Shown in pieces: positions 3 to 34,419 of a stretch of DNA of 34,682 nucleotides. Under the pieces are notes generated by a model. The model was not told the DNA's origin, ran no database searches, and saw only the letters and a list, made by a program, of their open reading frames with translations. The stretch spans positions 1-34,682 of the forward strand of contig CAIVJW010000213.1 in the NCBI GenBank assembly GCA_903906315.1. Direction: 5' to 3'. A program made the translations under genes and the position numbers. Source of the DNA: an uncultured delta proteobacterium (lineage in GTDB: Bacteria; Myxococcota_A; Polyangia; Polyangiales; Polyangiaceae). Positions within the stretch are counted from its first letter, which is position 1, and every line of letters starts with the position of its first letter.

Positions 3-1901
3 TCGGGCGCCGCGAGCGACGCCTTCGCGAGGACCGAGGCCGCGCGCACGCCCGCGCGATCGAGCGAGGCCTTCGCCGCCACCCTCGCCGCGCCCACGCC
101 GAGGTCGGGCGAGGCGGCGCCCCGAGAGGCCCCGCCCACGTCGGCGCGATCGCGCCCCGCGGCGCGGATCGCGATCGGGGGCCTCGCGGTCGCGGGCGTC
201 GCGCTCGCCCTCGGGGCGCTGTCCGCGCGCGGCAGGAGCCCGGCGCAGGCGATCGCGCCCGCCCCGATCGCGACCGCGGTCGCGCCGAGCTCCGCGTCGG
301 CGGCGAGCCGCGCGCGCCTCGCGACGGCGCAGCTCGACGAGCTGGCGATGGGCACCTCGATCCCGGCCGCGCGCGCGGCGTTCCTCGCGGGCTACCAGAC
401 GTTGCGCGACGCGGGCTCCGCGCTCGCGATGCTCGACAAGGCGCGCACGATCGACCCGAGCTACGGGGCGGCGCACCTCTGGTACGCCGTGGCGATGGCC
501 GACAGCGGGGCCGGGCTCGAGGCGCGGCCAGCGTTCAACAAGGCGAGCGAGGCCCGGGCCAGCCTGAGCCCCCGCAACCGAATCGTCCTCGACGCGCTCG
601 CGCCGTGCACCCGGAGCGAGCCGATCGACACGGCCGCGTGCGTGACGAAGCTCGAGGCCGCGGCGCAGGCCGACCCCGACGCGGCGTACCTCGTGTACCT
701 GCTCGGCAGCCGCCGCGGCGACGTGGGTCCGTCGACCGCGTACCTCGCCGACATGGACCGGGTGATCGCGGTCGACCCCGAGTGGGCGCTGCCGCTCCAG
801 GCCAAGGGCTGGGCGCTCTCGTACCTGGGCCGGTTCGACGAGGCGCGGGCGGCGATCGACCGCTGCATCCAGCTGTCGCCCGGCGCGGGCGCCTGCTTCC
901 AGAGCCGAATCCTGATCTCGAACCAGCTCGGCGACTGCGCGGCCGGCGAGGCCGACGCTCGACGCTGGCAGGCGGCCACGCCCGACGACCCCTCCGCGAT
1001 CTCGTACCTCGTGAACGCCGCGCTCGCGAAGGGGCTCCCGGCCGAGGCGCTCCACGAGATGAACGCCCAGTACGGGCTCAAGATCCCCGAGGCGCAGCGG
1101 GCCTGGTGGGACGCCTGGATGCCGAAGTTCGACGCCGTGCTGCGCGGTGACTTCCCCGCCGCGCGCCGGGCGGCCATCGACGTCGATCGCAAGACGGCGC
1201 CCCGGACCGACCGGCTCTACCACTACATCGCCGCCAACATGGCCATCGAGCTCGCGCTGGAGACGGGAGACGGCGCGGAGGCAGCGCGGGTCGCCGGGGA
1301 CGTGCTCCGTCGCAAGGACGCCTGGGTCGCCGAGCCCCGCAGCGACGACATCGCGATCGCGGGCGACATCGAGCCCTATTTCCTCGACGTGCTCCGCGAC
1401 GCCGGCAAGCTCTCCTCGCGCGAGCGCGCCGACCGGCGCGAGGCGTGGCTCCGCGGCTGGCGCTCGCACGTGAGCCCGTTCTACGAGCGCTACCTCTGGC
1501 TGACCGCCTACGCACCGCTCGTCGACGACGAGGAGGAGGCTCGCGAGGCCGAGGCGGCCCTGCCGGCAGGAGGAATCCCGCCGTTCTATCCCCTCTCCAC
1601 GGGCACGGGCGTGTCGGCGGACCTGGGCATCGGCAAGATGCACCTCCTGCTCGGCCGGGCGGCGGAGGCGCTCCCGTATCTCCGTCGCGCGGCGCAGGGC
1701 TGCACGGGCTCCGACGACCTCGTCCTCTACATCCGCGCGGCGATTCCGCTCGGCCAGGCGCTCGAGAAGACCGGCGACCACGACGGGGCGTGTCGCGCCT
1801 ACGCGAGCGTCACGGCGCGCTGGGGCAAGGCCAAGCCCCGCAGCGTGACGGCCGAGCAGGCCAAGGCGGCGGCCAAGGCGCTCCGGTGCCCCGCGCCCTG
1901 A
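3..1901 (+). CDS. TPR-containing membrane protein, C-terminal part; probably the sensor part of a Ser/Thr protein kinase (partial at left edge)
   Basis: The frame is open from the first bases of the window, so the gene starts upstream; the ATG at 348 is internal. The visible 632 residues begin with an Ala/Pro/Arg-rich linker. One transmembrane segment follows at about nt 168-228 (core GGLAVAGVALALGALSA), then a short Ala/Pro linker and a long helical repeat region. Several TPR-like units are readable there, with motifs such as GWALSYLGRFDEARAAIDR and LGRAAEALPYLRRAA. In myxobacteria this order (linker, single membrane segment, extracytoplasmic TPR domain) is typical of PknB-type kinases, where the TPR part is thought to bind proteins. 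The kinase domain itself lies outside the window, so that part is inference. The gene converges on the VWA gene at 2031. Confidence 0.75.
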   Translation, partial: SGAASDAFARTEAARTPARSSEAFAATLAAPTPRSGEAAPREAPPTSARSRPAARIAIGGLAVAGVALALGALSARGRSPAQAIAPAPIATAVAPSSASAASRARLATAQLDELAMGTSIPAARAAFLAGYQTLRDAGSALAMLDKARTIDPSYGAAHLWYAVAMADSGAGLEARPAFNKASEARASLSPRNRIVLDALAPCTRSEPIDTAACVTKLEAAAQADPDAAYLVYLLGSRRGDVGPSTAYLADMDRVIAVDPEWALPLQAKGWALSYLGRFDEARAAIDRCIQLSPGAGACFQSRILISNQLGDCAAGEADARRWQAATPDDPSAISYLVNAALAKGLPAEALHEMNAQYGLKIPEAQRAWWDAWMPKFDAVLRGDFPAARRAAIDVDRKTAPRTDRLYHYIAANMAIELALETGDGAEAARVAGDVLRRKDAWVAEPRSDDIAIAGDIEPYFLDVLRDAGKLSSRERADRREAWLRGWRSHVSPFYERYLWLTAYAPLVDDEEEAREAEAALPAGGIPPFYPLSTGTGVSADLGIGKMHLLLGRAAEALPYLRRAAQGCTGSDDLVLYIRAAIPLGQALEKTGDHDGACRAYASVTARWGKAKPRSVTAEQAKAAAKALRCPAP

Positions 1902-1986
1902 CCGTCGGGCGCGCGGGAGGGTTGCCGCCCTTGGCGCGACGGCCCGCGCGCTTCGGTCGCGTGGAGGAGGGCGACGGGGCGGCGTC

Positions 1987-2006
1987 GAGGGGGAGGCTGC
2001 CCCCTC
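1987..2006. terminator. hairpin between convergent genes, possible bidirectional terminator
   Basis: A perfect 7-bp stem (GAGGGGG / CCCCCTC) encloses the six-base loop AGGCTG. It lies in the 129-base gap between the convergent stops at 1901 and 2031. No T-tract follows on either strand, so the call rests on position and stem strength alone. Confidence 0.35.
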
Positions 2007-2030
2007 CGCCGATCCTCGCGCGCCGCCGGG

Positions 2031-3665
2031 CTACTTGCCCGCGCTCGAGGCGTACGCCGGGTGCTTCTGCACGAGCTCGTCGATCTCGCCGAGCTCCACG
2101 TCGCCCGCGAGGTCGGGCCGACCGAGCAGCCCTTCGATCTCCGCGTGCAGCGCGACGAGCAGGTCGTGCGCGCCGCTCGTGGCCTGGAGCGCCTTGGCGT
2201 AGCGCACGATCGCGCCGCCCTTCGCGAGCTCGCGCCCGCCGGACGGCCGCAGGTCGCTGATCGGGAGGGATACCGAGACCGCCTCGCGGTTCGTCGGGGT
2301 CGCCTTCGACTCCCACGAGACCGTGACCGAGATCAGGTCCGATCCCTGCACCTGCGCCTCGTCGCACGACGAGAGCTCCTGGCGAAAGACCATCTCGCCG
2401 CCGGGCGCGAGGTGCTGCGGCTCGATGTCCTCCGGGTTCGGCGAGTACCCCTCGCCGTCGAAGCCTGCGATCGAGAGGTACCAGGGCACCTCGACGGCGA
2501 CCTGGACGCTCCGCGCCGCGACGGACAGCACCTCGTCGAAGCGGTCGCCGAACATCCGGTCGGCCTCCTCGTCGCTGTCGAGGTAGACGTAGGCGCCTCG
2601 GCCGGCGTCCGTGAGCTGGTTCATCAGCCGGTCGCTGTAGCCCTGGGCAGGCCCGGTGCCGACGCCCGTGAGGTACACCTCGGCGCTGTCGGCCTTGCCG
2701 GCCTCGGCGCCGATGACCGATCCGTCGGTCACGCCGAGGTTCGCGCCGCCGTCGCTCACCAGCACGACGCGGTTCACGCTGCGCGGGTCGAAGCCCTCGC
2801 GAGCGACCTCGTACGCGGTCTGGAGGGCCGCGTGCAGGTCGCTCCCGCCGCTCGCGCGGAGCCCCTCGATCAGACCGGTCAGCGCCGGGTCGTCGGGGCC
2901 GGTGACGGCGTGCCTGCGCAGCAGGACGGACTCGGTGAGGCTCCACGTCAGCACGCTGACGACGTCCCCCGCGACCAGCTTCCGCGCGACGGCGCGGAGC
3001 ATCGCGCGTTCGCGCGCGAGGCCCTCGGTCGCCATCGATCCGGAGTTGTCGAGCACGAACGTCAGCGCCAGCGGCAGGCGCTGACCGACCGCTTGAAAGG
3101 CGCGGACCCCCACCTGCAGCTCGATCGTCGCGCCCGTGCGCACGGCCGCCGCGTGGACCGCGACCACCTGGGCCGCCGAGGCCGGCGGCGCGTAGCCGAC
3201 GTGGTAGTAGTTCAAGAACTCGTAGGTCCGGATGGTCCCCGGGTCCGGCACGAGCCCGGCGCGGAGCTGCTGCCGGGCGAGCACCGGAGACCCCATCGAG
3301 TTCGAGTCGTCGGCCGACTCGTAGTAGGCGTGTCGGTCCGGCGGGTTCAAGGCGGCCACGTCGACGCAGCCCCGCGCGACCTGCATACCCTTCACGACGT
3401 CCGGGTTGTCGACCGAAAGCCCCGACCGGTGCGTGCCCGGCACGCCGCCGCGGCTCAGCCCGGTCGCCTCCCCGGCTCCGCTGGCTCCCGCCCCCGGGCC
3501 GAAGGAATCCCCGGCCTCGTTGGCGCCGGAGGCATCCCCCATCGAGTCGGAGGCCGCCTGCGACCCGGAGCAGCCTGCCGCGAGCGCGACGCCGACGCCG
3601 AACAGGAGGCCGACCGCACGCAGCGAGACGCGCACGCGCCGACCGCGTCGGCACCGCGCGATCAC
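2031..3665 (-). CDS. VWA-domain lipoprotein of the YfbK type (downstream paralogue)
   Basis: This is a 544-residue predicted lipoprotein. A signal sequence with hydrophobic core VGLLFGVGVALAAGC puts the lipid-bearing Cys at 32, followed by a Ser/Gly/Ala-rich spacer to about residue 85. Residues 112-160 (ESADDSNSMGSP, RTYEFLNYY) match the N-terminal domain that precedes VWA in YfbK-like proteins. The VWA domain carries the metal-site motif DNSGS at 206-210, a GGSDLHAAL motif where a Thr-containing loop is usual, and LVSDGGANLG. The last ~150 residues fit the DUF3520-like tail. A GTG start at 3665 overlaps the stop of the upstream paralogue as GTGA, indicating coupled translation; an in-frame GTG at 3635 would give a more standard signal (Cys22). 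Such proteins are often labelled Ca-activated chloride channel-like without proof of channel activity. The role is probably protein or polymer binding at the cell surface. Confidence 0.85.
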   Translation of the reverse strand: MIARCRRGRRVRVSLRAVGLLFGVGVALAAGCSGSQAASDSMGDASGANEAGDSFGPGAGASGAGEATGLSRGGVPGTHRSGLSVDNPDVVKGMQVARGCVDVAALNPPDRHAYYESADDSNSMGSPVLARQQLRAGLVPDPGTIRTYEFLNYYHVGYAPPASAAQVVAVHAAAVRTGATIELQVGVRAFQAVGQRLPLALTFVLDNSGSMATEGLARERAMLRAVARKLVAGDVVSVLTWSLTESVLLRRHAVTGPDDPALTGLIEGLRASGGSDLHAALQTAYEVAREGFDPRSVNRVVLVSDGGANLGVTDGSVIGAEAGKADSAEVYLTGVGTGPAQGYSDRLMNQLTDAGRGAYVYLDSDEEADRMFGDRFDEVLSVAARSVQVAVEVPWYLSIAGFDGEGYSPNPEDIEPQHLAPGGEMVFRQELSSCDEAQVQGSDLISVTVSWESKATPTNREAVSVSLPISDLRPSGGRELAKGGAIVRYAKALQATSGAHDLLVALHAEIEGLLGRPDLAGDVELGEIDELVQKHPAYASSAGK

Positions 3666-5338
3666 TTGGGCACCGCGGGGAAGAGCGGGTGGTTCGGCAG
3701 CAGCCCGGCGATCTCGGTGAGCTCGGGATCCGCCGCGAGCTCCGGGCTGGCGAGCAGCTCGAGCACGCGCGCGTGGGCCAGCGCGAGCTGCCCGGGCGGG
3801 TCCTCGCCGACGAGCTTGAGCGCCTCCGCGTACCCGACGATCGCCTCGCCCTTGTGCAGGGCGGCGTGCGCCCCGACGAAGAGGTCGTTCAGGTCGAGCG
3901 TGAGCTCGTCGGTGTGGGGCTGCCGGGTCAGCGGATCGTCCCACGTCACGAGCACGTGCAGCGGGTCGCCGGAGACCAGCGGGTCGGTGAACCCGTACGC
4001 GCACCGCGCGATGACCTGCTGGAAGATCATCTCGCCGCCGGGCGCGAGGTGCTGCGGATCGATGGCGACCGGATCGGTGGAGTAGGCCTCCCCGAAGAAG
4101 TCGGGGATGTCGAAGTAGTACGGGACGGTGAGCTTGACCTGGACGTCGCGCGCCGCGATGCCGACGATCTCGTCGAAGCGCTTGTCGAACAGGCCCGCGG
4201 CCTCGCCAGCGCTGTCGAGGTACACGTACGCGCCGCGGCCGGCGTCGGTCACGGCGTTCATCAGCGAGTCCGCGTACCCGAGCGCGGGCCCGAGGCCGAC
4301 GCCGGCGAGGTAGATGCCCTCCTTGTCGGCGTCGCGGGCCTCGACGGCGATGACGTTGCGGTCGACGACGCCGAGGTTGGCGCCCCCGTCGCTGACCAGC
4401 ATCACGCGGTTCAGCCAGGTCTTATCGAAGTTCTCGTGGGCGAGCGCGTAGGCGGCCCTGAGGCCGGCGTGGAGATCGCTGCCTCCCTGCGGGCGGATCG
4501 CCTCGGCCACCGCGAGCACGGTGGCGTCGTTGGGCCCCGTGACGCGGTGACCGGAGAGCAGCACCGAGTCCTCGAGGTTCCACGTCACGACGCTGAGGAC
4601 GTCATCCTTCGCGAGCTTCTTGGCGAGGGCGCGGACGAGGGCGCGCTCCCGCTCGATGCCGACGCCCGCGAGCGACCCGGAAGCGTCGAGCGCAAGCGTG
4701 AGCGAGATCGGCCGCCGCACCTTGAGGGCGTCGACCGCGCGGACTCCGATCTGCAGCGACACCCGGGACGGGTCCTTCTGGCTCACCTCGGCATCGGCGT
4801 AGATCGCGACGTGGCCGGCGGCCGCGGCGGGGTGGCGGATGCGGTAGTAGTTCAGAAACTCGTAGGTCCGGACCGTCGCCGGGTCCGGGCTCTGGTGGGC
4901 GCGCAGGAGCTCCCGCGCCAAGGTGGGCGAGCCCATCGAGTTGGAGTCGTCGGCGGACTCGTAGAACGACCGGGTCAGCGGGTCGCCGTCCGTGGTGACG
5001 GCCTCGGCCGCCGCCGTGTCCATGGCCTCGAGGCACGCGGGCGGCGTCGGCGGCGGCTCGCTCGGGCGACCACCGCCCTCGTCCGGTCCCAGCTTGCCGC
5101 CGCCAGCGCCGGTCATCGTCCCGGTGTTTTCGGCGCTCGTCCCCGTCGAGAACCCGCTGGTGCCCGAGCCCGCGCGGTGCACCGGGGCGGTGGTGTCGCC
5201 GTTCGAAGGGGGCATGGGGCCGGGCGCGCCTCCCGGACCCGAGGCGCGGCCGGACGCATCGTCCTGCGAGGCGCCGCAGGCGGCTTGCGCTGCGATCGCA
5301 GCCGCTAGAAACCCGATTCCGAGCCACCGATTGAGCAT
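3662..5338 (-). CDS. VWA-domain lipoprotein of the YfbK type (upstream paralogue)
   Basis: This 558-residue protein begins at an ATG with a good ribosome site (GAGGA five bases upstream). The signal core is LGIGFLAAAIAAQAAC, giving Cys21 as the likely lipidated residue. A low-complexity Gly/Ser/Thr/Pro spacer runs to about residue 100. The YfbK-type N-terminal domain (ESADDSNSMGSP at 127-138, RTYEFLNYY at 157-165) precedes a VWA domain with DASGS at 218-222 and LVSDGGANLGV. It shares its whole architecture and several identical blocks with the gene directly downstream, so the pair looks like a tandem duplication that has since diverged, mainly in the spacer. The two stop/start codons overlap (GTGA), so they are probably one operon. 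The substrate or partner is unknown. Confidence 0.87.
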   Translation of the reverse strand: MLNRWLGIGFLAAAIAAQAACGASQDDASGRASGPGGAPGPMPPSNGDTTAPVHRAGSGTSGFSTGTSAENTGTMTGAGGGKLGPDEGGGRPSEPPPTPPACLEAMDTAAAEAVTTDGDPLTRSFYESADDSNSMGSPTLARELLRAHQSPDPATVRTYEFLNYYRIRHPAAAAGHVAIYADAEVSQKDPSRVSLQIGVRAVDALKVRRPISLTLALDASGSLAGVGIERERALVRALAKKLAKDDVLSVVTWNLEDSVLLSGHRVTGPNDATVLAVAEAIRPQGGSDLHAGLRAAYALAHENFDKTWLNRVMLVSDGGANLGVVDRNVIAVEARDADKEGIYLAGVGLGPALGYADSLMNAVTDAGRGAYVYLDSAGEAAGLFDKRFDEIVGIAARDVQVKLTVPYYFDIPDFFGEAYSTDPVAIDPQHLAPGGEMIFQQVIARCAYGFTDPLVSGDPLHVLVTWDDPLTRQPHTDELTLDLNDLFVGAHAALHKGEAIVGYAEALKLVGEDPPGQLALAHARVLELLASPELAADPELTEIAGLLPNHPLFPAVPK

Positions 5339-5541
5339 GGGGGTCCTCGTCGATAGGAGCACGAGCAGGACTAAGCAACGTGCGTGCCCCTTCGTCTCTC
5401 GAAGCATATCGCGGAGTTCGCGAGTCGGCGAGCTTCGCGCGCGGCACAGGCTGACGCAGGGCGGGCAACCTCGCCGCACGGGAGGCCCGCCGGAGAATCC
5501 GGGCCCGGCAGCGGTGAACACTTGGCCTGCGGGGGCCCGAC

Positions 5542-5925
5542 GTGCGACAAAACCCCACCGTGAAGGCGCGCGTCGTTGGCAGATCCCTCGCTGTGCTGCT
5601 GCTCTCGACAGCGGCGTCCCTGCTCGGCGGCTCGCTCGGCTGCGAGCTCCTCTTCGCCCCACCGGCGGCGCCGAAGGTCCCCGACCTGAAGCTGCCCGAG
5701 GCGCCGAAGCCACCGACGGCGCCGAAGCCGCCGGACCTGAAGGCCCCGCAGGTCCCGTCCGCGCCCGTGCCCGGCAACTGCTGCCTGCGCGACGCGAGCC
5801 AGGCGTCGCTGGCGTGCGGCGGCAACGCGGAGCGGTGCTGCTCGGACAAGTACGACCGGAGCGACTGCGAGGACGCGGGCGGCTTCTGGTTCCACACCCC
5901 CGAGGGGTGCGCGGGCGCCTGCTGA
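5542..5925 (+). CDS. small cysteine-rich secreted or lipid-anchored protein
   Basis: Family not recognised. The 127-residue product starts at a GTG (a second GTG six codons later is also possible). It has a basic N-terminus and a hydrophobic stretch (SLAVLLLSTAASLLGG) ending at Cys34, so it is probably exported and may be lipid-anchored, although the lipobox is imperfect. Residues ~38-77 form a Pro/Lys/Ala-rich spacer with repeated APKxPDLK-like units. The C-terminal 50 residues contain eight cysteines, including two CC pairs (NCCL and RCCSD), which suggests a small disulfide-stabilised module. The gene is transcribed away from the VWA pair across a 203-base divergent gap. Codon use resembles its neighbours. 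Function is unknown. Confidence 0.7.
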   Translation: MRQNPTVKARVVGRSLAVLLLSTAASLLGGSLGCELLFAPPAAPKVPDLKLPEAPKPPTAPKPPDLKAPQVPSAPVPGNCCLRDASQASLACGGNAERCCSDKYDRSDCEDAGGFWFHTPEGCAGAC

Positions 5926-6329
<404 letters not shown>

Positions 6330-15972: not shown

Positions 15973-18033
<2,061 letters not shown>

Positions 18034-25266: not shown

Positions 25267-26493
25267 ATGCGTCCCCGCGCCCTCTCCGCGCCCCTCGCGC
25301 TCTCGCTGTGCCTCGCGCTCTCGCTCGCCCTCCCGGCGTGCAACCGGTCGCGCGAAGGAGGCGGCGAGAGCGGCGGGATCTTCGGCGGCGGACCGGCGAC
25401 CGGCGCGTCGTCGGGGTCGATCGGCCCGGTGGCGTCCGTCCCCGCGGGGTCGTTCCGCGCAGGCAGCCCGTGCGGCGCCACCCCGCGCATCACGAACGAG
25501 GAGCTCGTCGGACCGACGATCGCGATGGGATCGTTCTCGATCGACGTCTACCCGTACCCGAACGACCCGGTGAAGCCGGCGCGCGTGGACGTGTCGCGTG
25601 ACGAGGCCGAAACGGCGTGCACGGAGCGCGGCCGGCGGCTCTGCTCGGAGCTCGAGTGGGAGCGCGCCTGCAAGGGGCCGGCGAGCACGACCTTCGAGTA
25701 CGGCGGCGGCTACGACGCAGCGGCGTGCAAGGCGCAGCCGGACCTCCTGCCCGGCAAGCGCCCGAGGTGCGCGAGCGCGTTCGGCGTGAAGGACCAGCAC
25801 GGCCTCGTGTTCGAGTGGACGCGGAGCGCGTGGGGGCGCGGCACGGGCAGCGAGCTCGGCACCGTGCGCGGCGGTCCCGGCGGCGTGCTCCAGGCGCGGT
25901 GCGCGAACGGCCAGAGCCGCCCCCCGGGCACCCGCGCGCACGACCTCGGCTTCCGGTGCTGCGGGGGCCCGGTCGACCCGGCGATCGTCGATCTGAGCCT
26001 GCGCCACGAGGCGACGATCGTGGAGGAGCCCAGCGTCGAGGGCGGCCTCGGCGCCGCGATGCTCCGCGCGATGCCGAAGGATCACCAGAGCGTCGCCGGC
26101 GCGCGCGTGGGGTTCGAGAAGCTGTGGCGCTGGCACCCACGCGACAACGAGGAGCTCCTCGTGGGCCGCTGGACGTCGCGCCCGTCGGGCCCGGAGCCCG
26201 CCTCGCACGTGATCGCGGTGTTCAAGGTGTGCGGCGGCGTGCCGGCGCTGGTCGCCCACATGCGGGGCGCGGTCGCGGAGGTCGGCGCGCCCGGATCGGG
26301 AGCGGATCCGCAGCGCCTCGGCGCGCGGGTCGCGACGAGCCCCGACGCGGGCGAGCTGCGGATCAGCTACTCGTACGGCTCCGTCGGGGTCGAGCACCCG
26401 GACTGGGTCAAGCCCGGCGCGACGCTCCCCGCGGGCGCGCGGCCCACGATCGCGCAGCCGAAGGGCCCGATCATCGCGCCGAAGCGCCGCTGA
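25267..26493 (+). CDS. SUMF1/FGE-type lipoprotein
   Basis: The 408-residue protein has a lipoprotein signal (LALSLCLALSLALPAC, Cys25) and a Gly/Ser spacer. A formylglycine-generating-enzyme-like (SUMF1) domain spans about residues 58-240: SFSIDVYPYPNDPVKPARV, RRLCSELEWERACKGP, and the closing block DLGFRCC. The remaining ~165 residues contain no domain I can name. True FGE oxidises a sulfatase cysteine with two active-site cysteines. Here the expected RGGSW-type block reads RGGPGG and the catalytic pair is not clear, so enzymatic activity is doubtful; a binding role at the envelope is more likely. Two further SUMF1-like lipoproteins lie at 29180 and 33253. Four base pairs of context (GC before TACGAT) link its start to the leaderless pattern. 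Confidence 0.8.
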   Translation: MRPRALSAPLALSLCLALSLALPACNRSREGGGESGGIFGGGPATGASSGSIGPVASVPAGSFRAGSPCGATPRITNEELVGPTIAMGSFSIDVYPYPNDPVKPARVDVSRDEAETACTERGRRLCSELEWERACKGPASTTFEYGGGYDAAACKAQPDLLPGKRPRCASAFGVKDQHGLVFEWTRSAWGRGTGSELGTVRGGPGGVLQARCANGQSRPPGTRAHDLGFRCCGGPVDPAIVDLSLRHEATIVEEPSVEGGLGAAMLRAMPKDHQSVAGARVGFEKLWRWHPRDNEELLVGRWTSRPSGPEPASHVIAVFKVCGGVPALVAHMRGAVAEVGAPGSGADPQRLGARVATSPDAGELRISYSYGSVGVEHPDWVKPGATLPAGARPTIAQPKGPIIAPKRR

Positions 26494-29179: not shown

Positions 29180-30253
29180 TCACTTGGTCGGCGTCACGCC
29201 CTTCGAGATCGGCCCCGCCTTCCGCTTGGCGGGCGGCGGCGGCGGCCTCCACACCGGCACCCCGTCGGCCGCGGGCTTCGCGAGGTCCTCGCGCGACATC
29301 CTCGGGTCGGCGCAGCAGCGGAACGAGATGAAGTAGTAGGTGAACTCGGGCGGGTGGCTGAAGGTGATCGGCCGGCAGGCGTTGCGCACGTGGCCCCACG
29401 CGCCGCCCTTGAGCCCGGCGAACTTCGACCGCCCGCGGTCCTTCTCGCTGATGACCCACTCGTCGAGGTTGCCCGTGAGGTCGTGCACGCCGAAGCCGGA
29501 GACGCAGCCGGCCTTCGCGCCGCTCGGCACGCTCTGGTCGAGGCGCGCGAGCTCGGCGTTCTGCAGCCCGGGCCGCGACGAGTAGACGCCCTTCAGGCGC
29601 GGCTCGATCCAGGGGTTGTCGAGGTTGCAGGCGACGGGGTCGCGCTTCCTGCCCGCGGGGAACGGGAGCTTCTCGGGCCCCTCGCACGCGGCCACCCACT
29701 CGCTCTCGTAGCAGAGGCGCTTGCCCTCGGCCTCGCACGCGGCCTCGCCGTCGTACCAGTCGACCATCACGGGCGGGTGCGCGCCGGCCTGGTTGGGGTA
29801 CTCGTACTCGTCGATGCAGTAGCGCTGCCGGCGCTCGGGCGAGGCGCACCGCTGGCCGGGCGCGAACTCGTGGCAGAGCGTGATGTGGTTCGACTTCGAG
29901 TACTCGCTCTTGAGGCAGCGCTGCTCGACCTCCGCGCAGTACGTCGTGTCGACGTAGCGCATGCCGGCCGGGCACGGCCCCTCGGCTTTCGGGGCGTCGG
30001 CCGCGGGCGGCGCGCCGGCGTCGGGCGCGCTCGCGTGCGCGGCGGCAGGCGCAGAGCTTGCGGGGCTCGCGGCCGAAACTGAGGCGGATCGATCGGTCCC
30101 CGCGTCGGCGGCGAGACTCGGGACTGGACGCGCCGGCTCGATCGGAGCAGACGAGGCGCACGCCGCGCAGGCGAGCGTGATCGCGAGGCCCGCGGGGGCG
30201 GTCGAGAGACCTTTCCCCGGGGCTGTAGTGCTAGGAGGGCGCTCGGTCGTCAT
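29180..30253 (-). CDS. SUMF1/FGE-type lipoprotein
   Basis: The 357-residue protein has an N-terminal hydrophobic stretch ([14 protein letters not shown]) ending in cysteines that could be lipidated, then an Ala/Ser/Pro spacer to about residue 90. The SUMF1-like domain contains [45 protein letters not shown] and [13 protein letters not shown], and ends in ISFRCC. These motifs give the fold clearly. The second active-site cysteine of true formylglycine-generating enzymes is not evident, so it may be a non-catalytic surface protein. The only canonical start is the ATG at 30253, whose first two bases pair with the start codon of sucC on the other strand; no Shine-Dalgarno sequence is visible. A Pro-rich basic tail follows the domain. 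Confidence 0.78.
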
Positions 30254-31450: not shown

Positions 31451-32326
31451 ATGAGCATCCTCGTCAACAAAGACACCCGGGTCGTATTCCAAGGCATCAC
31501 GGGTGAATACGGCTCGCTCCACGCGAAGGCCTGCCTCGCGTACGGCACCAAGATCGTCGCCGGCGTCACGCCGGGTCGCGGCGGCCAGAAGTTCGAGGAC
31601 AAGGTCCCCGTCTTCAACACCGTCGCCGAGGCCGTGAAGGCCGAGGGCGCCGACGTCTCGTGCATCTTCGTCCCGCCCGTCGGCGCCGCCGACGCGATCT
31701 GCGAGGCCGTCGACGCGGGCGTGAAGCTCGTCATCTGCATCACCGAGGGCATTCCGGTGCTCGACATGGTGAAGGCCCGCCGATACATCGAGAACAAGGA
31801 CGTCCGGCTGATTGGGCCGAACTGCCCCGGCGTCATCACCCCGGACGAGTGCAAGATCGGCATCATGCCGGGCGCCATCCACAAGAAGGGCCCGATTGGC
31901 GTGCTCTCGCGATCCGGCACGCTGACCTACGAGGCCGTCGGCCAGCTGTCGGCACTCGGCATCGGGCAGTCGACGTGCATCGGCCTCGGCGGCGACCCCG
32001 TCGCGGGCATGGACTTCATCGACGTCCTCGACCTCTTCAACAAGGACCCGGAGACCGAGGCCGTCATCATGATCGGCGAGATCGGCGGCAACGCCGAGCA
32101 GCGCGCGGCAGCCTGGATCAAGGCGAACATGAAGAAGCCGGTCGTCGGCTTCATCGCGGGCCGCGCGGCGCCTCCGGGCAAGCGCATGGGCCACGCGGGC
32201 GCCATCATCGCGGGCGGCAAGGGCACGGCGGCCGAGAAGATCGCCGCGCTCGAAGAGGCCGGCGTGAAGGTCGCGCCGACTCCGGCGGACATGGGCACGA
32301 CGCTCGTCGCGGCCTGGAAGAGGTAG
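31451..32326 (+). CDS. sucD: succinate-CoA ligase, alpha subunit
   Basis: The 291-residue SucD carries the CoA-binding Rossmann domain ([16 protein letters not shown], then TPGRGG) and the active-site histidine that is phosphorylated during catalysis, His248 in [17 protein letters not shown]. Length and motifs are those of the family throughout ([31 protein letters not shown]). A clear ribosome site GAGGAAAG lies about four bases before the ATG. The gene is co-transcribed with sucC, and a strong hairpin ends the operon 22 bases after the stop. Confidence 0.97.
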
Positions 32327-32461: not shown

Positions 32462-32656
32462 ATGACCACGCGCAACCTCGCCGACCCCAACTTCGAGCCG
32501 ACGGACGAGGACTTCCGCGACCTCCTGCACGCTGCCGGGACCGACGCGCGCGAGGCGCATGTTGCCGCGGAGTCCCTCGTCCGCGAGCGGATCCGGGCGC
32601 TGCGCGCCGCGGCGACGCAGACCGCGACGGGCCAGCTCGGCGCCAGCCGCTCGTGA
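32462..32656 (+). CDS. small protein, possible antitoxin partner of a zeta-like kinase
   Basis: The 64-residue product is acidic in its first half (LADPNFEPTDEDFRDLLHAAG) and mostly helical, with an Ala-rich C-terminus. It has no signal or membrane segment. Its stop overlaps the GTG start of the zeta-toxin-like gene (GTGA), the layout of many type II toxin-antitoxin operons, and that position is the main reason for the suggestion. I do not recognise it as the epsilon antitoxin or any other named family. Since the downstream gene is broken, the small protein may no longer have a partner. Its frame is intact. Confidence 0.55.
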   Translation: MTTRNLADPNFEPTDEDFRDLLHAAGTDAREAHVAAESLVRERIRALRAAATQTATGQLGASRS

Positions 32657-32920
32657 AGCCGGTCCTCGTCGTCCTCGCGGGCCCGAACGGCGCCGGCAAG
32701 ACGACGGTGGACGGCGCGTCTGCGGCGCGACACCTGGAGCGTGGGCGTCGAGTACATCAACCCGGACGACATCGCCCGGGACCGGTTCGGCGACTGGAGC
32801 TCGCCCTCCGCGGTGCGGCAAGCCGCCGTCTGGGCCGAGGCGCAACGGGAGGAGCTTCTGGCGGCGCGCGCAGGCATCGCGTTCGAGAGACGCACGTGCT
32901 CGCTGAACGCCGCGCCCGCC
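32653..32920 (+). pseudogene. zeta-toxin/P-loop kinase-like gene, frameshifted and cut off
   Basis: The GTG start gives VKPVLVVLAGPNGAGKTT, with a perfect Walker A motif at residues 10-18. That frame then turns into Arg-rich nonsense. From about 32740 the homology continues one frame over: GVEYINPDDIARDRFGDW, then SAVRQAAVWAEAQREELL and AGIAFERR, matching the order of zeta-toxin family proteins (NADEIAR-type segment, then a FET-type segment). A one-base insertion (or equivalent) between about 32703 and 32725 explains the switch. The homology stops near 32905-32920, where the 3' end of a minus-strand thioredoxin-like gene begins. Only about 90 of the ~190 residues of a zeta domain remain. Active enzymes phosphorylate UDP-sugars or related targets; this one should be dead unless the frameshift is a sequencing error, and even then it is truncated. 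Confidence 0.7.
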
Positions 32921-32923
32921 CTC

Positions 32924-33286
32924 CTACGGCACGTGCGCGACCACGTCCTCCGCGGTCGCCCCCGGCGGCGCGGCCCAGCGCACCTCGCCGTCCTGGCCAA
33001 TCACGAACGTCGCCGGCACCGTCGCCACCCCCGTCGCGCCCTTCAGCGTGCCGGCCTTGTCGACCAGGAACCGCTCGCGCACTCCCCAGCCATCGAGCAC
33101 CTTGCGCGCGTCGTCGGTCGACTCCCCCTCTCGCAAGGCAGCCAGTAGCACGAGCTTGCCCCCGCGCGACTCGAGGTCTGCCTTGCGGGCGACGAGGGCG
33201 GGGAGGCTCCGCTTGCAGGGCTCGCAGTCGGTGGCCCAGGCGTCGACCACGGTCACCTTCGCGGAGGACGCGGGGACATGGCGAAG
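32924..33286 (-). pseudogene. TlpA/thioredoxin-like gene lacking its 5' part
   Basis: The minus strand encodes about 120 residues of a thioredoxin-fold domain of the TlpA type. KVTVVDAWAT is followed by the redox motif CEPC (Cys-Glu-Pro-Cys), KRSLPALVARK, RERFLVDKAG, VATVPATFVIGQDGEVRW (with the usual cis-Pro) and a natural-looking end EDVVAHVP. There is no start codon, signal peptide or N-terminal region: upstream the homology stops at about HVPASS, where a SUMF1-like gene begins in another frame. TlpA-like proteins keep cysteines reduced in the periplasm. This copy is probably not expressed as a working protein. Confidence 0.72.
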
Positions 33287-34419
33287 GCGCAGTACGCCGT
33301 CGCCTGGTTCCAGTCGACGCAGTTGATCGGGTGGTTGCCGCGGTCGGGCTTGTCCCAGTTGCACGAGGACTCGCTCGTCAGCCCTTCGTCCGTGCACCGG
33401 CCCGCGCCGACGCACGCCCGGTAGGCCGCGACCGTCACCTCCGTGAGGTCGATCTCGAACGCGCCCACCGTGACCCGGTGCGCGGGCGCGGCGGAAGCCC
33501 AGTCGGGTAGGTCATTCGCGCCCATCAGAAAGCTGCCGCCGGAGATGCTCACCATGCCGCCGCTCGCCGGCGAGGGCGCGCGCGGGCGCGGCGGCTCGAC
33601 GGCGGCGGGAGCCGGGGCGGGCACTGGCGCGGGACGTGGCGCCTCCACGACGGGCTCCGGCCTCGGCGGCGCCGGCGCTTCGGCCTGCCGCCTCTCCGGC
33701 AGCTTCGGCTCGATCTTCATCAGCTCGATCTTCAGCGGCGCGCTGCACTGCGGGCTCGCCTGCCCGGTCCGGTTCGCCGCCACGCACGCCTCGAGGCTCC
33801 CGTCGCCGTCGTGGCGCTGGATCCCCTGCGCGAGGTGCGTCCCCGCCCCGATCCCGAACAGGACCGCGCTCGCGTCGATGGCCTCGCGACTCCCTCGGTG
33901 GATCGCGAAGCCGCCGACCGTGATGCTCTTGACCACGTAGTTCGCCTTGGCGCACTCGCGCCCTCGGAGGGCGCCAATCGTCGCGTCCGGCGGCAGGAGC
34001 CTCGTCCCCACCATCAGCACGTCCTTCTTCAGCGCGTCGCCCTCGTGCAGGCCCGCGCCGAGGCGCGCCGCGCCGAGCGGGAGCTGCGCCCAGAGGTCGC
34101 CCGCGCGATAGGCCGTCTTGTGGTCCTCGCTCGAATAGGCCTTGTATTGGTACTTGCCCTCGGCGAAGCAATCGAGCAGCTCCAGCTCCACGAGGCAGCG
34201 GTGCTCCGTGAAGCGCACCGCGACGATGCCCGAGTCGGCCACCTGATCGAGCTTCGCGCGCTGGGTCGGCGCCAGGCCGAGGACGTCGCGCCCCGTGTCC
34301 AGGCACGTGAGCGTGTTGCGCTCGCCGTCGCCGAGGTCCCACGGCTTGAGCTGGGGGCCGCCGCAGGAGGTCGTGACGGCGAGGAGGGAGGCGAGGCCGA
34401 CGGAGAGGCGGGACAGCAC
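33253..34419 (-). pseudogene. SUMF1-type lipoprotein gene lacking its 3' part
   Basis: A GTG at 34419 gives a lipoprotein signal (RLSVGLASLLAVTTSC, Cys19). About 260 residues of a myxobacterial-type extracytoplasmic region follow (LKPWDLGDGERN, RCLVELELLDCF, a Pro/Ala-rich linker). A SUMF1 domain then begins with MVSISGGSFLMGANDLPDW, EIDLTEVTVAAYRAC and HPINCVDWNQATAYCAFA. At that point, where KRLPTEEEWE-like sequence should follow, homology ends. Nine unrelated residues (MSPRPPRR after the Ala) lead to a stop at 33253, while the adjacent TlpA-like sequence starts in a different frame. The 388-residue product lacks about two thirds of the SUMF1 domain. It might still be made and exported, but the domain cannot fold normally. 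Confidence 0.72.

What the first reader, a model, noticed from the sequence alone, without database searches (positions are those of the whole stretch)
33253..33300. Deletion scar joining the 5' part of a SUMF1 lipoprotein gene to the 3' part of a TlpA-like gene, out of frame
On the minus strand SUMF1 homology runs up to DWNQATAYCAFA. Within a few bases TlpA homology begins (HVPASSAKVTVVDAW) in another frame. Both proteins are cut in the middle of a domain at the same place, about 33270-33288. The simplest reading is one deletion across two adjacent genes. An assembly collapse would give the same picture.
Basis: partly seen in the sequence, partly recalled or inferred. Interest (0 to 1): 0.55.

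Follow-up and report, generated by a model that had tools for sequence, protein, structure and literature searches.

The report
Deletion scar of lost diversity-generating retroelement
Two broken genes in a myxobacterial genome are fused at a deletion scar where related bacteria carry a machine that rapidly mutates a surface protein, so the scar most likely marks where that machine was lost.

Summary
On the minus strand, a SUMF1 (FGE-sulfatase) lipoprotein gene stops mid-domain at 33281/33280, and a TlpA-like gene missing its first ~50 codons continues in another frame. The join shares about one base.

Relatives explain it. In G015:C164, G027:C255 and G129:C482 the same two genes flank an intact diversity-generating retroelement (DGR): variable region (VR) at the SUMF1 3' end, avd, template repeat (TR), and a reverse transcriptase (RT) with the DGR GxxxSQ motif. 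TR/VR differences sit at TR adenines in 18/19, 24/25, 15/16 and 23/24 cases. In G024:C88 both genes are intact, but only an RT tail and a worn TR remain between them. The stretch matching the scar is 853, 2519 and 2649 bases long in G024, G015 and G027.

Best reading: one deletion removed VR, TR, avd and RT with the inner ends of both genes, leaving pseudogenes. That this lineage's ancestor had the core is inferred from synteny; no trace of it was found in the window. A second truncation and a frameshift within 0.6 kb suggest decay. Assembly error cannot be excluded without reads, but a repeat collapse does not fit. The scar is ordinary; the locus is moderately interesting.

The parts
33281..34419 (-). 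5' part of a SUMF1/FGE-sulfatase lipoprotein gene (GTG start, lipobox-like Cys19, N-terminal domain with conserved cysteines, Pro/Ala linker, first ~105 positions of the FGE domain); truncated
   Evidence: relatives
33280..33281 (-). Junction (scar): last SUMF1-like codon GCC (33282-33280), first TlpA-like codon CAT (33280-33278); about 1 base shared
33253..33279 (-). Out-of-frame tail of the SUMF1 reading frame, MSPRPPRR and stop TGA
32924..33280 (-). 3' part of a TlpA-like thiol-disulfide oxidoreductase gene (CEPC motif and stop intact); signal peptide and first ~50 codons missing
32888..32923 (.). Short flank between the TlpA stop and the second truncation
32735..32887 (+). Kinase-like (zeta/AAA_33-type) gene, second piece, cut after GIAFE: probable second scar at about 32887/32888
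   Evidence: longer homologue in G010:C21, L082
32653..32709 (+). Kinase-like gene, first piece (VKPVLVVLAGPNGAGKTTV), in another frame from the second piece: frameshift between 32709 and 32735

Best explanation
The junction is a real deletion scar. The ancestral locus carried, in order: a SUMF1/FGE-type lipoprotein gene that was a DGR target with its variable region at the 3' end; an avd gene; the template repeat; a convergent RT gene; and a TlpA-like lipoprotein thiol-disulfide oxidoreductase gene. One illegitimate recombination event with almost no homology removed everything from the middle of the FGE domain to about codon 50 of tlpA, roughly 2.5 kb if the ancestor resembled G015 or G027. 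What remains can at most make a truncated lipoprotein with half an FGE domain and a TlpA core that lacks its export signal, so the locus is now a pair of pseudogenes and can no longer be diversified. Shown: the scar; the intact DGR at the same locus in relatives; the worn DGR at the same locus in another relative. Inferred: that this lineage once had the core; the size and mechanism of the deletion; loss of function.
For: Truncated domains on both sides. Same genes flanking a DGR in G015:C164 and G027:C255 (TR/VR mismatches 18/19 and 24/25 at TR adenines; the single exception is a C/G difference at the same 3' site in both, as expected for IMH/IMH*, which I recall), and in G129:C482 with one TR and two VRs (15/16 and 23/24). 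RTs hit PF00078 and hold IGSLTSQ. Avd proteins pass Pfam bAvd PF22296 in G015 and G027. G024:C88 keeps intact SUMF1 and TlpA with a worn TR (10/15 at A) and a 25-residue RT tail: 42 bits, against a maximum of 22.3 in 200 shuffles. Scar-equivalent points are 853, 2519 and 2649 bases apart in G024:C88, G015 and G027 (not measured in G129). The SUMF1 N-domain has no close second copy in the assembly: next best E 6e-15, 34%. A second truncation and a frameshift lie within 0.6 kb.
Against: No TR, VR or RT remnant was found in the window. The best RT hit (E 0.005, 30% over 69 aa, 31565-31762) lies inside sucD in its frame and is taken as chance; the best TR/VR-query hits are 14 bases at E 0.04 and, with G024's VR stretch, 33 bases at E 0.004 some 12 kb away, also taken as chance. 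No same-genus genome is held, so the ancestor is read from relatives whose SUMF1 is about 33-43% and TlpA about 31-54% identical. The N-domain tree places the window in the 12-row group with the DGR-bearing loci but gives no supported sister, and the window's branch is long, 1.82 against a median of 0.38. Some relatives have FGE-type SUMF1 and TlpA without a DGR (G005:C49, G024:C324, TlpA upstream), and three loci with TlpA downstream of the N-domain but no FGE domain in that gene (G025:C46, G018:C207, G010:C13) show no DGR. No reads were available.
Confidence: 0.7

Rival explanations
1. A deletion across two genes that were already directly adjacent, in a lineage whose DGR core was lost earlier or never present; the scar then removed only about 0.6-0.9 kb.
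For: G024:C88 has SUMF1 and TlpA intact with 853 bases between scar-equivalent points and no whole DGR. G005:C49 and G024:C324 have both genes without RT, and G025:C46 has N-domain/OmpA and TlpA genes close together with no DGR. No DGR remnant found in the window.
Against: All 4 fetched loci with the same gene order and orientation and an FGE domain hold a TR between the genes, 3 of them with an RT. Even G024:C88 shows the core was there.
Confidence: 0.17
2. Assembly artefact: a chimeric or collapsed contig joined two parts of the locus. DGR loci can be hard to assemble because TR and VR are repeats and VR varies between cells (my inference).
For: Draft genome in 455 contigs; the scar lies 1.4 kb from a contig end; no reads; several lesions cluster in 0.6 kb.
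Against: The junction is upstream of where the VR would be and inside tlpA, not at TR/VR, and shares about one base, whereas a repeat collapse needs a long shared repeat. None of the other 17 matches spans the junction into tlpA. Three FGE stretches starting near profile position 101-105 (C164, C266, C300) turn out to sit in long frames of a divergent FGE type, not orphan 3' ends. SUMF1 and TlpA frames are open up to the join.
Confidence: 0.1
3. A functional gene: the two halves are expressed as one SUMF1-TlpA fusion by frameshifting, or the TlpA core is made by re-initiation at the in-frame GTG that overlaps the SUMF1-frame stop (GTGA, 33256-33253).
For: Both frames are open to the join, the CEPC motif is intact, and the stop/start overlap is visible in the sequence.
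Against: The FGE domain lacks more than half its length, TlpA would lack an export signal, and no fetched relative shows such a fusion.
Confidence: 0.03

Closest known systems
Inverted-type DGR (RT on one strand; TR, VR and target on the other), PMC3521204 (passages and section 15 read)
   Same: Relatives' loci have this layout, long TR/VR repeats (122-138 bp), almost only A changes, and the (I/V/L)GxxxSQ RT motif
   Different: The window keeps only the two flanking gene stubs; no DGR part was found there
DGR-diversified outer-membrane lipoproteins of Legionella and Treponema (passages in PMC10907252 and PMC8867640)
   Same: Lipoprotein target; in the relatives the variable region lies in an FGE domain, called a subtype of C-type-lectin folds in PMC10907252
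   Different: A myxobacterial target with a cysteine-rich N-terminal domain and a TlpA-like neighbour; the window copy has lost the part that would hold its variable region
Degraded or remnant DGRs of cyanobacteria (all3226 remnant TR-VR; RT-only cassette of Anabaena sp. 90; passages in PMC7517822)
   Same: DGR parts removed while target-gene pieces remain
   Different: Here the deletion runs into both flanking genes, and the same locus shows a different loss in another lineage (G024:C88)

Membership tests
Diversity-generating retroelement (window locus) | RT gene with (I/V/L)GxxxSQ motif | tested here: not met
   No RT in the window; best hit E 0.005 inside sucD
Diversity-generating retroelement (window locus) | TR/VR pair with changes at TR adenines | tested here: not met
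   No TR-like stretch beyond short weak hits; the SUMF1 3' end that would hold the VR is missing
Diversity-generating retroelement (relatives' loci G015:C164, G027:C255, G129:C482) | RT with (I/V/L)GxxxSQ motif | tested here: met
   IGSLTSQ in all three; PF00078
Diversity-generating retroelement (relatives' loci) | TR/VR pair with changes at TR adenines | tested here: met
   18/19, 24/25, 15/16, 23/24 mismatches at A
Diversity-generating retroelement (relatives' loci) | Accessory protein Avd | tested here: met
   PF22296 over cut-off in G015 and G027; NF033474 best NCBIfam hit but below its cut-off of 80 bits (75 and 63.7). In G129 only read by eye
Diversity-generating retroelement (relatives' loci) | Ongoing mutagenic retrohoming | not testable with these tools
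   Needs reads or culture
FGE-sulfatase / SUMF1 domain protein | Complete PF03781 domain | tested here: not met
   Profile positions 4-105 of 255 only
TlpA/ResA-like thiol-disulfide oxidoreductase | Thioredoxin-like fold with CxxC | tested here: inconclusive
   CEPC and C-terminal part present, first 24 AhpC-TSA profile positions and signal peptide missing; NCBIfam ResA E 2e-10, 40.7 bits against a cut-off of 170; no fold predicted

The most novel reading that the evidence does not exclude
The SUMF1 lipoprotein / TlpA pair is a dedicated module in Polyangiaceae-like bacteria: a surface receptor with a cysteine-rich N-domain whose FGE head is diversified by a DGR, and a thiol-disulfide oxidoreductase that serves its folding or redox state. 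The mutating core is excised repeatedly and independently from this locus (here with loss of the receptor, in G024:C88 with the receptor kept and its variant frozen), so DGR loss is a recurrent evolutionary step.
Probability: 0.3. Interest if true: 0.6.

Novelty: new member of a known kind. Interest (0 to 1): 0.4.

Why it matters
If right, the scar is one end state in a series (intact, worn, deleted) of a DGR at one conserved locus, which allows the loss of hypermutation to be studied by comparison. It also points to a frequent TlpA-like neighbour of DGR-diversified lipoproteins in myxobacteria. My searches of the held papers listed no paper that, by title and start of abstract, treats these; they cover only open-licence papers, and I read passages of only some of them.

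Tried and rejected
In-frame or conserved fusion: no fetched relative has it. TR/VR recombination as the deletion mechanism: rejected, because the junction lies outside where both would be. DGR remnants in the window: none beyond weak hits. A close second copy of the N-domain in the assembly: not found. Orphan SUMF1 3' ends: three FGE stretches starting near position 101-105 were checked and belong to long frames of another FGE type; others that start at 74-94 were not checked one by one. Three scars in a row: the first kinase break is better read as a small frameshift, the second as a truncation. Trees for the exact sister of the window gave no supported answer. Plasmid search with the kinase pieces: no match. 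The 47-aa kinase piece matched 3 of 59 genomes, own included. Named-genome scan with the TlpA fragment alone: no relative; with a 4-row alignment: 4 loci, of which three equal G025, G024 and G005 contigs by length and so name them JAAFHV010000014, JACQWT010000216 and CANJMI010000049; the fourth is a weak hit in Paludisphaera. G005:C49 and G025:C46 self-repeats show no A bias.

Full report
Setting. The window is a whole contig (C213, 34,682 bases) of a draft genome of 8.79 Mb in 455 contigs. No other genome of its genus is held. The three family members that I could name are MAGs titled Myxococcales, Deltaproteobacteria and Polyangiaceae.

The observation. On the minus strand, a GTG-started reading frame from 34419 encodes a lipoprotein-like protein whose FGE-sulfatase domain matches profile positions 4-105 of 255. 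It then runs into MSPRPPRR and a stop. A TlpA-like frame begins at 33280 (HVPASSAKVTVVDAW) and ends at 32924; it covers AhpC-TSA positions 25-123 of 124. In an alignment with seven intact homologues the fragment lacks about 50 N-terminal residues, signal peptide included. Six SUMF1 paralogues of the same genome read on past the homologous point with SUMF1-like sequence. The two homologies meet within about one codon, with one shared base.

Relatives. With the SUMF1 part, 53 of 59 genomes (own included) give a match, and with the TlpA part 58 of 59; many of these are other members of large families. Nine places with both on one contig were fetched, plus one TlpA place without SUMF1. Because those nine were chosen for having both, they do not measure how often the genes are paired. 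A less biased set is the 11 further loci that I took by TlpA score alone (108 genomes searched): 7 of 11 have the SUMF1 N-domain and/or an FGE domain nearby; in three of the four without it the TlpA match lies within about 1.2 kb of a contig end. Orientation varies: TlpA lies downstream, upstream, divergent or convergent.

What lies between them. In G015:C164 the order is SUMF1, avd, TR, RT (opposite strand), TlpA. The SUMF1 3' end and the TR are 131 bases long with 19 mismatches, 18 of them at TR adenines. In G027:C255 the order is the same, with 138 bases and 24 of 25 at adenines. In both, the one exception is a C/G difference at the same spot near the 3' end, as in IMH/IMH* pairs of known DGRs (recalled). 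G129:C482 has one TR and two VRs (15/16 and 23/24 at adenines) and an RT between SUMF1 and TlpA. All three RTs hold IGSLTSQ, which fits the motif given for DGR RTs in PMC3521204 (passages read). Pfam bAvd passes its cut-off in G015 and G027; NCBIfam's Avd model is the best hit there but stays under its cut-off. The RT lies opposite to target, TR and VR, the 'inverted' layout of PMC3521204 section 15. Self-repeats in L069, L071 and L077 show no adenine bias.

Half-decayed cases. G024:C88 has intact SUMF1 and TlpA. Between them are a 68-base TR-like stretch (10 of 15 mismatches at A) and, on the other strand, a 25-residue RT C-terminus: 42 bits, against a maximum of 22.3 in 200 mononucleotide shuffles. 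G024:C379 has an RT match that ends at about residue 148, with a stop soon after and before the contig end, beside N-domain and TlpA genes. In all 4 of 4 fetched loci where an FGE-type SUMF1 gene is followed by TlpA in the same direction (G024:C88, G015:C164, G027:C255, G129:C482), DGR parts lie between. Against this, three loci with TlpA downstream of an N-domain gene without FGE (G025:C46, G018:C207, G010:C13) show no DGR, nor do G005:C49 and G024:C324, where TlpA is upstream.

Reading of the scar. Points equivalent to the two sides of the junction are 853 (G024:C88), 2519 (G015) and 2649 (G027) bases apart. A deletion from mid-FGE to TlpA codon ~50 would remove VR, avd, TR and RT together. 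In the window itself no RT or TR was found: the best RT hit (E 0.005) lies inside sucD in its own frame, and the best TR/VR-query hits are short (14 bases, E 0.04; 33 bases, E 0.004, about 12 kb away). So the window locus is not a DGR; it is what I infer to be left after one was lost. The N-domain tree puts the window in the 12-row group that holds the DGR-bearing loci, without a supported sister and on a long branch.

Is it real? A repeat collapse needs a long shared repeat at the join, and none is seen; the join is also not where TR or VR would be. None of the other 17 matches to the 1-kb stretch in the genome spans the junction into tlpA. Three FGE stretches that start near profile position 101-105 were checked and are parts of long frames of a divergent FGE type, not orphan 3' ends. 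Next to the scar, a kinase-like gene on the plus strand has a frameshift between 32709 and 32735 and stops matching its homologue at 32887, where about 120 residues or more are missing. Several lesions in 0.6 kb fit a decaying stretch, but they would also fit a poorly assembled one. No reads were available.

Context in the genome. The genome has 57 FGE stretches. C415, C313 and C55 hold TR/VR pairs with 22/22, 19/19 and 13/13 mismatches at TR adenines. C415 and C313 have an RT (one search lists five PF00078 matches in this genome: C197, C375, C185, C415, C313); in C55 the RT matches only in two end pieces with the middle missing. DGRs have thus worked in this genome, and at least one other looks broken.

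Function. In the N-domain, the lipobox-like Cys and five further cysteines are each conserved in 15 of 16 rows; a sixth near the start is offset in the alignment. With a TlpA-like lipoprotein as neighbour, a disulfide-related partnership is plausible but untested. In G025:C46 the same N-domain is joined to an OmpA domain instead of FGE.

Literature. Searches: DGR with FGE-sulfatase (6 papers), with Myxococc (9), with variable protein, lipoprotein and degenerate (0), with TlpA (1, unrelated by title), DGR with hypermutation or antigen sensors (37, 10 listed), with pseudogene and template repeat (2), with Polyangi (0). Passages seen: PMC8144416 (none on FGE or myxobacteria), PMC10907252, PMC3521204 (section 15), PMC8867640, PMC7159879, PMC7517822. 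PMC7517822 describes remnant TR-VR homology without RT and suggests removal of diversification components once a variant is selected. The G024:C88 state fits that idea; the window is a more destructive outcome. PMC7159879 links FGE-type domains and DGRs to conflict systems of multicellular bacteria, which are found in myxobacteria too, but the passages seen do not treat this lipoprotein/TlpA locus.

Noticed in passing
G000:C415 (L089) 1140-5155: Complete inverted DGR in the same genome: FGE target (N-terminal part reads by eye as a Ser/Thr protein kinase), bAvd, TR 2387-2512(-), RT on +; 22 of 22 TR/VR mismatches at adenines.
   Followed up: partly
G000:C313 (L154) 2968-5285: Second DGR: RT 3085-4134(-), TR/VR 124 bases, 19 of 19 mismatches at adenines.
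   Followed up: partly
G000:C55 (L155) 2346-4168: TR/VR pair 13 of 13 at adenines, but the RT matches only in two end pieces; another ORF (by eye a GxxExxY-type protein) lies between.
   Followed up: partly
G024:C477 (L153) 3654-5947: Another relative's DGR: FGE target, RT and a TR/VR pair with 16 of 16 mismatches at adenines.
   Followed up: no
window 32462-32887 +: Small ORF plus zeta/AAA-type kinase gene with a frameshift and a 3' truncation, resembling a decayed toxin-antitoxin-like pair; Pfam support is weak (Zeta_toxin E 0.009, under cut-off).
   Followed up: partly
G000:C381 and C196 (L092, L090): Further SUMF1-type genes that look broken by eye: C381 is cut mid-domain; C196 appears frameshifted near its 3' end.
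   Followed up: no
G000:C373:179-271 (L088): Asn-rich TR-like FGE 3' end at a contig start, 82% identical to the C415 TR.
   Followed up: no
L069 4469-5872 (G025:C46): The same N-terminal domain is fused to an OmpA domain instead of FGE, with TlpA still downstream.
   Followed up: partly
window 2378-3324 and 4015-4964; 16435-17047: A 70% identical duplicated stretch of ~950 bases, and a run of overlapping 270-350 base repeats.
   Followed up: no
window 25585-25959 + and 29183-30253 -: Two other FGE-domain genes in the window with profile matches only from about position 82-94 onward.
   Followed up: no
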